Origin: Plantactinospora endophytica | Lineage (GTDB): Bacteria; Actinomycetota; Actinomycetes; Mycobacteriales; Micromonosporaceae | DNA length: 64,000 nucleotides | NCBI RefSeq assembly: GCF_016862915.1 | Contig: NZ_BONW01000021.1 | Location: forward strand, 1 to 64,000 | Reading direction: 5' to 3' | In this document: piece by piece, positions 33,238 through 35,456 of the stretch | Position numbering within the stretch: position 1 is the first letter of the stretch | Layout: each line of letters opens with the position of its first letter | Program-made: the position numbers and the translations under genes | Notes under the pieces: generated by a model | Databases searched by the model: none | Told to the model about the DNA's origin: nothing | The model's input: the letters and a program-made list of their open reading frames with translations, nothing else

Positions 33238-34080
33238 TCAACTCGCGTACGCCGGGTCGGCCAGGCTGACCAGGGTGGCTCCGGTCGAGTCGTCCACCAG
33301 GGCGACCCGGACCCGGTCCGGTGCCACCTCGGCGGCCGGTACGGCGAACACCGCAGTCGCCGGCCGGCCCTGGTAGCGGGCCGAATAGCAGACCATCCGC
33401 CAGGACTCCTCCAGCCAGTGCTCCCGGACGTCCGAGGTGAGCAGCGCGGCGACCTGCCGGTACGCGGCACTGAGCTGGAGTTGCTGCACACTCGCCAGCA
33501 GCGGTACGCCGGAGCCGCCGCGCAGCGGCGAGGTCAGCCGGACCCGGAGCCGGCGCAGCGGCAGCAGCCAACCCGAGTCGAACTCGGGCGACAGTGCGAC
33601 GATCAGCGCCGCCTCGGCCAGCAGCAGCCCGACCGAGGCGGCCGGGGCGCCGGTCAGCGCCGGCAGCCAGTACGTGCCACCGGCCGCGACACCGAAGAGC
33701 CCGGCCAGCGCCAGCACGCCGGCCCGGCCGATGCTGCGCCCGGTGACCGGGGTGGCCTTGGCGCTCAGGCAGCCGCAGGACGCGCCGGGTGCGACGCGGC
33801 GGGCGTACCAGAGGTAGCCGACGAAGCCGGCGGCCAGCGCGGTCGCCGCCACCGGCTCGGCGACCGGGGCCGGCGGCAGCACCAGCGCGACGCCGAGCAG
33901 CAGTTCGACCCCGCCGAGCAGCCGGTACGCCGGCACCGCCCGCTCGGGGCCGAGCAGCGTGCCGAGCGCCGAGTTGCCGACCTGTCCGGCCACCCGCCGG
34001 TCGAGGAGCTTGATCCGGGCGGACCAGATCAGCACGACGCCGACCAGCAGGGACTGGAGCGCCGCCAGGGACTGGAGCAT
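33238..34080 (-). CDS. MauE/DoxX-family redox-associated membrane protein
   Basis: 280 residues. An N-terminal four-helix MauE domain (about residues 1-160) includes a CGCL motif (ASCGCLSAKATPVTG) that could be redox active, followed by a soluble C-terminal region of about 110 residues of unknown fold. In methylamine utilisation, MauE with MauD is needed to form the disulfide-rich light chain of methylamine dehydrogenase. Here it is the last gene of an operon that starts with a 15-cysteine protein, which makes a disulfide-forming role attractive, though unproven. 69 bp follow the Tat-protein gene. Confidence 0.8.
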   Translation of the reverse strand: MLQSLAALQSLLVGVVLIWSARIKLLDRRVAGQVGNSALGTLLGPERAVPAYRLLGGVELLLGVALVLPPAPVAEPVAATALAAGFVGYLWYARRVAPGASCGCLSAKATPVTGRSIGRAGVLALAGLFGVAAGGTYWLPALTGAPAASVGLLLAEAALIVALSPEFDSGWLLPLRRLRVRLTSPLRGGSGVPLLASVQQLQLSAAYRQVAALLTSDVREHWLEESWRMVCYSARYQGRPATAVFAVPAAEVAPDRVRVALVDDSTGATLVSLADPAYAS

Positions 34081-34149
34081 GATGCCCTCCTCTCTCGTGC
34101 CGGGTGCGGATGCGGGCCCGTCGACGCTGGACGGGCCCGCCCCGCACCG

Positions 34150-34752
34150 TCAGTTGGCGGCGTAGACGGTGGCGATGCTGATCTCGTTGGTGTCCGGGTG
34201 CCAGGCGCCGATCACCTGGACGTGCCCGCCGACCTTGAGCAGCGAGACGTCCGAGATGGCCGGGGTGCCGTTGTAGACGGCGGCGGTGGTGCCGGGTACG
34301 ACGTGTCCGATCAGCCGCTTGCCGTGGTGGTCGAGGTACAGCACGTTGCGCCCCACCGAGGCGATGTGCGCGGTCAGGTTGACGATGTTGGCCCAGAGCG
34401 AGTCGGCGGCGAGAGTGCCGTCGGGCAGCCGTACGCCCCGGACGTACATGCCGTCGCCCTTGGTCAGCTTGTCGAAGGTGGTCGGCTGGAACTTCCAGAT
34501 GCTGGTGCCGTTGGTGACCTGGATCCGGTGCAGTGCGCCGTCGGAGCCGGCCAGCAGCACCACGCTGCCGGTGATCGAGGTGACCCGGCCCTCGGCGAAG
34601 TTGGGGTCGGGTGCGCCGGGCGCGATCTTCACCGGCTCGGCGGCGAAGGCGGCCTCCGGGGCGAGCGAGCCGAGTGCGGTGGCTCCGGCGATGCCGGCGC
34701 CGCCGAGTACGGCCGTGCTGAGCAGTCGTCGACGGTCCATCGTGTTCGCCAT
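34150..34752 (-). CDS. Tat-exported protein, DUF5666-like beta fold
   Basis: 200 residues. The twin-arginine signal MDRRRLLSTAVLGGAG (from residue 5) ends near AFAAEP (about 38). The mature part (FAEGRVTSITGSVVLLAGSD, LHRIQVTNGTSIWKF, KGDGMYVRGVRLPDGTLAAD, VGGHVQVIGAWHPD) has the repeated short beta-strand pattern seen in DUF5666/OB-like secreted proteins. GGGAGG lies 9 nt before the ATG. It starts 13 bp after the Cys-rich gene and precedes the MauE-like gene. Function unknown. Confidence 0.75.
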   Translation of the reverse strand: MANTMDRRRLLSTAVLGGAGIAGATALGSLAPEAAFAAEPVKIAPGAPDPNFAEGRVTSITGSVVLLAGSDGALHRIQVTNGTSIWKFQPTTFDKLTKGDGMYVRGVRLPDGTLAADSLWANIVNLTAHIASVGRNVLYLDHHGKRLIGHVVPGTTAAVYNGTPAISDVSLLKVGGHVQVIGAWHPDTNEISIATVYAAN

Positions 34753-34765
34753 CGTGGAGTCCTCC

Positions 34766-35176
34766 CTACACGGTGTCGACGGAGCAGGGCCGGAGCCCGG
34801 TGGACAGGCTGGCGATGGCGCTGTACGCCGCCGGGGTCAGGTCGATGATCCGGTTGGTGCCGCAGGCCGACCCGCAGCAGGCCCGCTCGCCGCAGAACAG
34901 GTCGGTCTGCGGTCCGCAGTCGGCGATGGCGGTGCCGACCCGGGCGCCGTTGCAGAGGTTGGTGGTGTAGTGCGTGAAGCCGCAGGTCCGCCGGGACAGG
35001 CTGGTGCCGCAGACGTCGGGCCGGGTGATCGCGAGACAGGCGGCCGAGGTGTTCGGCCAGGCGTGCTGGAAGTTGCCGGACGTGCAGGTGCCGCAGGCAC
35101 CCCGGCCGGTCGACGCGCACGGACCCCAGGCGCTGCCGCAACAGAACCAGGACACCTCTCCGGTCACAGCTGCCAT
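34766..35176 (-). CDS. Cysteine-rich protein (15 Cys), possibly methylamine dehydrogenase light-chain-like
   Basis: 136 residues with Cys at 12, 13, 20, 28, 31, 47, 56, 65, 75, 87, 95, 100, 101, 105 and 131, and Trp at 10, 17 and 40. The spacing C-x3-W-x2-C-x7-C-x2-C-[ST]-x-G and the later ACCG segment resemble parts of the methylamine dehydrogenase light chain, which has six disulfides and a tryptophan-derived cofactor. The second cofactor Trp region (IIWCFG-like) is absent. No signal peptide is visible, and an in-frame TAA lies 24 nt upstream of the start, so none is hidden. GGGAGG is 8 nt before the ATG. First gene of an operon ending in a MauE-like gene. Homology is a hypothesis. Confidence 0.72.
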   Translation of the reverse strand: MAAVTGEVSWFCCGSAWGPCASTGRGACGTCTSGNFQHAWPNTSAACLAITRPDVCGTSLSRRTCGFTHYTTNLCNGARVGTAIADCGPQTDLFCGERACCGSACGTNRIIDLTPAAYSAIASLSTGLRPCSVDTV

Positions 35177-35231
35177 GATCGGTCCTCCCTTCGGGGGTTA
35201 AGGGAAACGACGTTGATCAATATTGACGACA

Positions 35232-35260
35232 ATTGTTACGACAGAAACCCACCGAGTCAA
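35232..35260 (-). promoter_or_regulatory. Sigma70-like promoter of the Cys-rich operon
   Basis: On the minus strand TTGACT (35260-35255), a 16-bp spacer and TAACAA (35238-35233) fall within an AT-rich island. The predicted start is near 35226, about 50 nt before the Cys-rich gene. Confidence 0.55.
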
Positions 35261-35300
35261 TAGATATACATGAAACTTTTCTTCAACTGCGCCCAGCCAT

Positions 35301-35370
35301 TCACGACTGATCACGGCTGATCACCGCCAACCACGGCCGATCAGGGCCGATCAGCGCCGATCACGGCCAG
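35301..35370 (+). repeat. Seven tandem 10-bp repeats, consensus TCACGGCCGA
   Basis: Consecutive decamers from 35301: tcacgactga, tcacggctga, tcaccgccaa, ccacggccga, tcagggccga, tcagcgccga, tcacggccag. The period is exactly 10 bp, so the GATCA-containing core faces the same side of the helix in every unit. The array lies between the divergent promoters at about 35232-35260 (minus) and 35391-35396 (plus). Confidence 0.85.
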
Positions 35371-35402: not shown

Positions 35403-35456
35403 ATGGCAACCGCCGACACCGACCCGTCCCACGGCCGTCCCGCGAGGCTCCGCTGA
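35403..35456 (+). CDS. 17-codon leader ORF coupled to the winged-helix gene
   Basis: ATG at 35403 encodes MATADTDPSHGRPARLR. Its TGA (35454-35456) overlaps the ATG of the next gene as TGATG. With the -10 box 6 nt upstream, ribosomes would load on this ORF and re-initiate on the main gene, whose own ribosome site is weak. No codon run suggests attenuation. It may exist only to drive coupled translation, and the peptide could be non-functional. Confidence 0.5.
   Translation: MATADTDPSHGRPARLR

What the first reader, a model, noticed from the sequence alone, without database searches (positions are those of the whole stretch)
33238..35176. Cys-rich protein / Tat protein / MauE cassette: an orphan methylamine-dehydrogenase-light-chain-like system?
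A 15-Cys, 136-aa protein with C-x3-W-x2-C-x7-C-x2-C and ACCG segments recalling the MADH light chain is co-transcribed with a MauE-like protein, whose known partner role is light-chain disulfide formation. A Tat-exported protein lies between. No heavy chain, MauD or MauG lies within the window. This could be a different disulfide-scaffolded, possibly quinone-bearing protein with its own maturation membrane protein.
Basis: partly seen in the sequence, partly recalled or inferred. Interest (0 to 1): 0.75.

Follow-up and report, generated by a model that had tools for sequence, protein, structure and literature searches.

The report
Cysteine-rich barrel protein with export partners
Three adjacent actinobacterial genes that travel together appear to make a disulfide-rich relative of cell-wall-loosening proteins that has no export signal of its own, beside an exported partner and a membrane redox protein that may carry and oxidise it; it does not look like an amine dehydrogenase subunit.

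Summary
The three genes are real and form a fixed cassette on the minus strand: CYS (34766-35176), TAT (34150-34752), MAUE (33238-34080). All three occur in 50 of 50 loci held (window included) and 79 of 80 named loci, the miss being cut by its contig end; one genome carries the whole trio twice in tandem. CYS is not a methylamine-dehydrogenase light chain: against seven MauA proteins its profile scores 16.3 (column shuffles reach 21.4), against RlpA-type double-psi barrels (DPBB) 62 (shuffles at most 17.5). DPBB_1 matches 35 of 35 members at E<=1, best 3e-7. The barrel Asp is invariant (108 of 108); the RlpA His position is never His. Twelve Cys are invariant; some others are lost or gained together, fitting disulfides outside the cytoplasm, yet CYS has no signal peptide. 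Best reading: an expansin/RlpA-like wall protein exported by hitchhiking on the adjacent Tat protein and oxidised with MauE's help. Fold family, linkage and Cys pattern are shown by sequence; export, oxidation and function are inferred.

The parts
34766..35176 (-). CYS: 136-aa Cys-rich double-psi beta-barrel (RlpA/expansin-like) protein without signal peptide
   Evidence: ORF; match in 65 of 300 family genomes; DPBB_1 at E<=1 in 35 of 35 members; hhalign to RlpA-type DPBB, prob 96.8
34784..35011 (-). DPBB core of CYS, residues 56-131 (CG...TTN.C.G..V.T.IADCGP...RIIDLTPAAYSAIASLSTGL)
34853..34909 (-). Cys-rich insertion (residues 90-108) between the DCGP turn and the IDLT strand, absent from the RlpA-type and expansin-like sequences aligned
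   Evidence: alignments
34150..34752 (-). TAT: 200-aa protein with twin-arginine signal and a sub-threshold DUF5666-like domain; proposed carrier of CYS
33238..34080 (-). MAUE: MauE-family membrane protein with a C-terminal extension
   Evidence: PF07291, 50.2 bits; alignments A3 and A6
33769..33780 (-). SCGC motif of MAUE (residues 101-104); C102-G-C104 invariant in alignments of 20 and 34 sequences
33241..33588 (-). C-terminal domain of MAUE (residues 165-280) without a Pfam match; same phyletic pattern as CYS and TAT
35232..35260 (-). promoter-like site TTGACT-17-AACAAT; TTGAC occurs in the 200 bases upstream of CYS in 70 of 80 sequences (shuffle mean 10)
35184..35189 (-). likely ribosome-binding site GGGAGG, 7 nt before the CYS ATG
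   Evidence: sequence, read by eye

Best explanation
The cassette makes and exports one wall-acting protein. CYS is a single-domain double-psi beta-barrel of the RlpA/expansin/barwin group (shown by sequence profiles), and its Cys pattern is that of a disulfide protein (strongly suggested). It lacks a signal peptide (shown for the window), so it must cross the membrane some other way. The neighbouring TAT gene, which starts a median of 13 nt after the CYS stop, makes a twin-arginine-signal protein that probably binds CYS in the cytoplasm and carries it through the Tat translocase as a hitchhiker, as MelC1 carries signal-less MelC2 in Streptomyces (inferred). MAUE, with its invariant Cys-Gly-Cys, then helps form or correct the disulfides (inferred from its family). 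Outside, CYS probably binds or loosens glycan (its own peptidoglycan or environmental polysaccharide) in the expansin manner: the barrel Asp is kept and the RlpA catalytic His position is not His, so RlpA-type lytic transglycosylase chemistry is unlikely (inferred).
For: DPBB: 35 of 35 members hit PF03330 at E<=1, best 3e-7. A PF03330 search over 61 genomes rang 4 of the 15 CYS genes known there, in G004 and G009 over the curated cut-off and in G007 and G026 below it, and also two genes of G697 below it that proved to be CYS copies. hhalign score 62 against shuffles of at most 17.5. Asp86 108/108, His at the RlpA position 0/108. Disulfides: 12 Cys invariant in 108 of 108; C12 and C20 absent together in L035; an extra N-terminal Cys occurs with an extra strand Cys (79 or 81) in 5 of 5 and again in both G697 copies (by eye). 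No signal: no hydrophobic N-terminus in 35 of 35; 7 codons to the upstream stop in the window (open frame 143), 1 in L080, L089 and L098. Unit: the 48 CYS-positive handles are the TAT and MAUE-C-terminus positives, plus G113; G697 has CYS-TAT-MAUE-CYS-TAT-MAUE, so duplication took the trio as a whole. No other neighbour is shared by more than 4 of 23 loci. MelC1/MelC2 precedent: passages of PMC2758597.
Against: No structure, interaction, localisation or activity data. Tat normally exports folded proteins, and a 14-Cys barrel would have to be accepted before its disulfides form. TAT could be exported alone while CYS stays inside as a metal-binding protein. Some Cys do not pair: C6 in four sequences has no obvious partner, C131 is optional (75 of 108), most members have an odd number (15 Cys in 73 of 108), and C38 of the G697 copies lacks C131. 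No MauD-like gene is shared by the loci. Membrane topology of MAUE is open (hydropathy only). The window protein alone is below Pfam's cut-off (14.3 against 28.8 bits), 11 of 15 CYS genes did not ring with PF03330 at E<=0.001, and similarity to four expansin-like sequences alone is weak (23.5).
Confidence: 0.5

Rival explanations
1. CYS is a cytoplasmic Cys-rich protein that binds metal through its thiols; TAT and MAUE act in the envelope on something else.
For: No signal peptide; CC and CxxC motifs; odd Cys numbers in most members.
Against: Nine of nine RlpA-type or expansin-like relatives whose N-termini I printed show a hydrophobic segment there (by eye); some Cys are lost and gained together; obligate linkage to an envelope redox protein.
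Confidence: 0.2
2. CYS is exported, but as an antimicrobial barwin/RlpA-like effector against fungi or other bacteria rather than as a wall-loosening factor.
For: Barwin-type proteins include antifungal ones (recalled), and an RlpA-like fungal protein is called a protease-inhibitor effector in the title of PMC7662947 (search listing); patchy distribution (65 of 300 family genomes).
Against: No immunity or regulator gene is shared by the loci; the sequence is strongly conserved (70-96% identity to the window among the other 34 members of A4), unlike most arms-race effectors.
Confidence: 0.12
3. CYS is a divergent MADH-light-chain-like protein carrying a Trp-derived quinone, matured with MAUE.
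For: Cys richness, three conserved Trp, MauE partner.
Against: hhalign to MauA within shuffles; clear DPBB relationship; PF02975 does not ring on CYS; no PF06433 heavy chain detected (no control rang).
Confidence: 0.03
4. CYS is the precursor of a modified peptide (RiPP), as proposed for other Streptomyces clusters with mauE and Cys-rich small proteins.
For: PMC7794033 (section 7 read) reports three candidate RiPP families with mauE and precursors of at least 8 Cys; another MauE in this genome lies beside an ATP-grasp-like ORF (named by me from the sequence).
Against: CYS is a conserved barrel domain over its length, not leader plus core; no modifying enzyme or peptidase is shared by the loci; that study screened ORFs shorter than 100 aa.
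Confidence: 0.03

Closest known systems
RlpA-type DPBB_1 domain (PF03330)
   Same: Barrel core with the VTN..G..V...I.D.GP...IDL..AAF..IA pattern and the Asp; profile probability 96.8
   Different: No His at the RlpA catalytic position (0 of 108); Cys-rich insertion; no signal peptide or second domain; 14 conserved Cys
Bacterial expansin / barwin D1 domain
   Same: Asp aligned with the D-x-C-P turn of expansin-like relatives; the equivalent Asp82 matters for expansins (passages of PMC5072189)
   Different: No D2 domain; weak direct profile score (23.5); no signal peptide
MauE (PF07291) of the mau operon
   Same: Membrane domain and Cys-x-Cys loop
   Different: No MauD shared next to it; extra C-terminal domain; partner is a DPBB protein, not MauA
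MelC1/MelC2 of Streptomyces (Tat hitchhiker pair)
   Same: Adjacent genes, one with a Tat signal; the other exported (there) or proposed to be exported (here) without one (passages of PMC2758597)
   Different: Unrelated proteins; carrier gene is downstream here; no export data here
Methylamine dehydrogenase light chain MauA (PF02975)
   Same: Small, Cys-rich, MauE partner
   Different: No profile similarity; the seven MauA proteins have an N-terminal RR region of their own (sequences); no heavy chain found

Membership tests
DPBB_1 / RlpA-like (PF03330) | Significant match to the family profile | tested here: met
   35 of 35 members at E<=1, best 3e-7; hhalign 96.8; 4 of 15 CYS genes rang in a genome search, two over the curated cut-off. 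The window protein alone is below the cut-off
DPBB_1 / RlpA-like (PF03330) | Barrel Asp in the D-x-G-P turn | tested here: met
   D86 in 108 of 108
RlpA lytic transglycosylase | Catalytic His of the AAHKT motif (His/Asp pair recalled, not read) | tested here: not met
   0 of 108 His at position 60, the aligned place if the stretch to the Asp has no gap; the alignment puts a 2-residue gap nearby, and the residues around (SLSRR or alike) hold no conserved His either
Bacterial expansin | D1 barrel followed by D2 binding domain | tested here: not met
   CYS ends with the barrel
MADH light chain (PF02975) | Profile similarity to MauA | tested here: not met
   hhalign score 16.3, shuffles reach 21.4; no PF02975 match on CYS at E<=10
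MADH light chain (PF02975) | Tryptophan tryptophylquinone from two cross-linked Trp | not testable with these tools
   needs mass spectrometry; structure prediction off
MauE (PF07291) | Match over the curated cut-off | tested here: met
   50.2 bits, cut-off 27
Tat substrate (TAT protein) | Twin-arginine motif, hydrophobic core, A-x-A site | tested here: met
   RR in 34 of 34; A-x-A/G pattern in 32 of 34; export itself not tested
Tat hitchhiker (CYS) | No signal of its own and export dependent on a Tat partner | tested here: inconclusive
   no signal and an adjacent Tat partner are shown; dependence needs an experiment

The most novel reading that the evidence does not exclude
A self-contained three-gene export and folding module: a dedicated Tat carrier takes a signal-less barrel with 14 conserved cysteines across the membrane, and a dedicated MauE with its own C-terminal domain then closes seven disulfides, giving a new class of disulfide-armoured expansin-like protein in actinobacteria.
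Probability: 0.4. Interest if true: 0.72.

Novelty: new variant of a known kind. Interest (0 to 1): 0.55.

Why it matters
MauE-family proteins are usually thought of through methylamine dehydrogenase; here is an actinobacterial MauE with one fixed client whose fold family can be named. If CYS rides on TAT, it would be a Tat hitchhiker whose cargo is a disulfide protein, which makes the question of when Tat cargo is folded and oxidised testable in culturable actinomycetes. A signal-less expansin/RlpA-like protein would also be missed by secretome predictions.

Tried and rejected
MADH light chain kinship: tested with seven annotated MauA genes, chosen from 31 plasmid records with a match, and rejected. 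Wider operon: all-against-all comparison of flanking ORFs (at least 90 aa, E<=1e-12) in 23 of the 80 named loci found only two clusters shared by 4 loci, scattered aldehyde dehydrogenase and ABC ATPase paralogues. Internal duplication of TAT: its halves do not match (score 13). PDB profile searches with CYS gave only weak hits: one chain named RlpA-like double-psi barrel (9ce9, E 0.17 and 0.028), a collagen-protease enhancer (E 0.15 and 0.9) and others weaker; nothing convincing for TAT. Of the six weak phylum hits, three (L136, L139, L140) are ordinary DPBB domains by eye and three (L137, L138, L141) look like chance, as does L188 of the class search. Upstream GAAA-N0-2-TTTC element (32 of 80, shuffles 0.26): UP element or operator, not resolved. 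A plasmid-collection search for an annotated copy gave one record without annotation there. Literature: eight searches; no title or abstract start listed describes this cassette; only combined RlpA-like, MauE and Tat signal, and its top paper (PMC8406197, five occurrences of MauE) was not opened. Opened, passages only: PMC10924467, PMC6895207, PMC5072189, PMC2758597; PMC7794033 passages and section 7.

Full report
What is there. Three genes run head to tail on the minus strand: CYS 35176-34766, TAT 34752-34150, MAUE 34080-33238, with gaps of 13 and 69 nt. A promoter-like site TTGACT-17-AACAAT sits at 35260-35232 (1 found, 0.1 in shuffles) and GGGAGG lies 7 nt before the CYS ATG. Two congeners of the window's genome, G104 and G078, have contigs of the same lengths as the Plantactinospora alkalitolerans and P. 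mayteni records, so the window is very probably from a Plantactinospora (inference).

Is it more than chance. CYS was found in 65 of 300 genomes of the family, the window's own included; one of them (G278) has a second, weak match. I held loci for 50 of those 65, L005 being the window itself; all 50 have CYS, TAT and MAUE on one strand in this order, L028 with MAUE cut by the contig end and L011 with only part of TAT matched. The named collection gave 196 confirmed relatives, of which the 80 best were kept (Micromonospora, Plantactinospora, Catellatospora, Asanoa, Hamadaea, Phytomonospora, Actinorhabdospora, Rhizocola, Catelliglobosispora, Kribbella, Nonomuraea, Sphaerisporangium, Streptosporangium, Thermoactinospora, a Micromonosporaceae bin, and one record titled Streptomyces). 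79 of 80 carry all three genes; L072 ends before MAUE. The two sets overlap in genomes, so they are not independent. Over 394 genomes of the class, four besides G000 gave strong hits and all four carry all three genes, two of them with CYS at E of about 1e-52; a fifth hit, L188, looks like chance. Over 396 genomes of the phylum only G000 gave a strong hit, so the cassette is concentrated in certain actinomycete lineages.

A tandem copy. A genome of another family in the order, G697, rang twice with DPBB_1 below the cut-off. Its region (L192) holds CYS-TAT-MAUE-CYS-TAT-MAUE, all on one strand, with CYS at E 5.5e-55 and 8.9e-52, TAT at 2.1e-83 and 1e-76, MAUE at 1.2e-81 and 1.9e-54. The trio was duplicated as a unit.

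Co-occurrence. In draws of 200 family genomes, TAT has strong hits in 49 (two more genomes, G014 and G143, have weak matches confined to the first 52-61 profile positions) and the MAUE C-terminal domain has hits in 49. By handle these are the same 49: the 48 CYS-positive genomes in that range, plus G113, which keeps the MAUE domain and a TAT fragment but gave no CYS hit, as a decaying copy would. Flanking genes are not shared by more than 4 of the 23 loci compared.

What CYS is. Pfam gives only a faint DPBB_1 match for the window protein (E 0.048), but 35 of 35 aligned members match at E<=1, the best at 3e-7. A search of 61 genomes with DPBB_1 rang 4 of the 15 CYS genes known there at E<=0.001: G004 (30.6 bits) and G009 (29.7) over the cut-off of 28.8, G007 and G026 below it; 11 did not ring. 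Profile-profile comparison with 18 RlpA-type domains, picked by motif from the relatives' loci, gave probability 96.8, E 2e-10, score 62.2; 20 column shuffles reached at most 17.5. Four expansin-like domains gave 23.5 (shuffles at most 16.9). Seven mature MauA proteins gave 16.3, while shuffles of CYS reached 21.4. As controls, expansin-like against RlpA gave probability 96.2, and MauA against RlpA gave 3.7. So CYS is a DPBB protein and not a light-chain relative. In the alignment the barrel core is interrupted by a Cys-rich insertion (residues 90-108) between the DCGP turn and the IDLT strand. Asp86 is invariant in 108 distinct sequences; position 60, which matches the RlpA catalytic His when the spacing to the Asp is kept, is Leu, Met, Val, Ile or Phe and never His. 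That the equivalent Asp matters for expansins is from passages of PMC5072189; that RlpA's DPBB is its catalytic domain is from passages of PMC6895207; the His/Asp assignment in RlpA is recalled.

Disulfides without a signal peptide. Of 134 CYS sequences, 108 are distinct. Twelve Cys are present in 108 of 108; C12 and C20 in 107, and the single exception, L035, lacks both; C131 is optional (75 of 108). Five sequences from two lineages have an extra Cys near the N-terminus, and all five also have an extra Cys at 79 (L036-L038) or 81 (L186, L187); both G697 copies repeat this (by eye). Against simple pairing: L036-L038 and the G697 copies have a Cys at 38, four sequences have a Cys at 6 without an obvious partner, and 73 of 108 have 15 Cys. 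No member of 35 has a hydrophobic N-terminal stretch. The window ORF can extend only 7 codons upstream (open frame 143 against 136), and in L080, L089 and L098 only one. In other loci the frame stays open further (only 10 of 80 have 10 codons or fewer), so the statement is firmest where the stop is close.

The partners. TAT has RR in 34 of 34 members and no Cys or one (21 and 13 of 34); DUF5666 matches 27 of 34 members at E<=1, best 1.2e-5, below the cut-off in the window. MAUE matches MauE over residues 5-131, with C102-G-C104 invariant in alignments of 20 and 34 sequences, followed by a domain without a Pfam match. Elsewhere in this genome, MauE proteins sit beside a DsbA-like thioredoxin (L001) and in an ATP-grasp cluster with a redoxin-like ORF (L002) (functions named by me from sequence), which supports a redox role for the family. 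PMC7794033 (section 7 read) says MauE has been speculated to help form disulfides in the methylamine dehydrogenase beta-subunit.

How it most likely works. A disulfide-type protein with no signal, made next to a Tat-signal protein and a MauE, is most simply read as cargo, carrier and oxidase. Streptomyces offers a precedent: MelC2 lacks a signal and is secreted by hitchhiking on MelC1, which has a Tat signal (passages of PMC2758597); hydrogenases and formate dehydrogenases do the same (passages of PMC10924467). The carrier step, the oxidation step and the wall-related function are inferences; fold family, linkage and Cys pattern are shown from sequence. The main difficulty is that Tat cargo is normally folded before export while disulfides form outside.

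Novelty. The parts belong to known families. I saw no description of the combination in the listings of eight literature searches; most subscription papers are not in that library.

Noticed in passing
L192 (G697:C2:278500-287000): Whole cassette twice in tandem in a genome of another family of the order.
   Followed up: partly
L002 (G000:C36:11699-15097): Another MauE in the same genome lies between an ATP-grasp-like ORF, preceded by a small ORF ending GGCPGDCVTDDACS, and a redoxin-like ORF followed by an ABC-type one: a likely RiPP cluster using MauE.
   Followed up: no
L001 (G000:C4:1-2761): A further MauE lies next to a DsbA-like thioredoxin with a CPIC motif and near a CopC-like ORF: possibly a general disulfide pair of the cell.
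   Followed up: no
window 35271-35285 and upstream regions of L055-L134: GAAA-N0-2-TTTC element upstream of CYS in 32 of 80 sequences (window plus 79 loci, L063 dropped; shuffles 0.26); before the TTGAC box in the window and several Micromonosporaceae, after it in several Nonomuraea.
   Followed up: partly
window about 35307-35370: Short direct repeats of the type GATCA(C/G)GGC between the cassette and the divergent ORF at 35456 (by eye).
   Followed up: no
L011 and L074 (TAT region): The start of TAT in this Micromonospora is in another frame than the rest, as by a frameshift or sequencing error.
   Followed up: no
G113 C1:6101780-6102979: A congener keeps the MAUE domain and a TAT fragment but gave no CYS hit: a decaying cassette.
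   Followed up: partly
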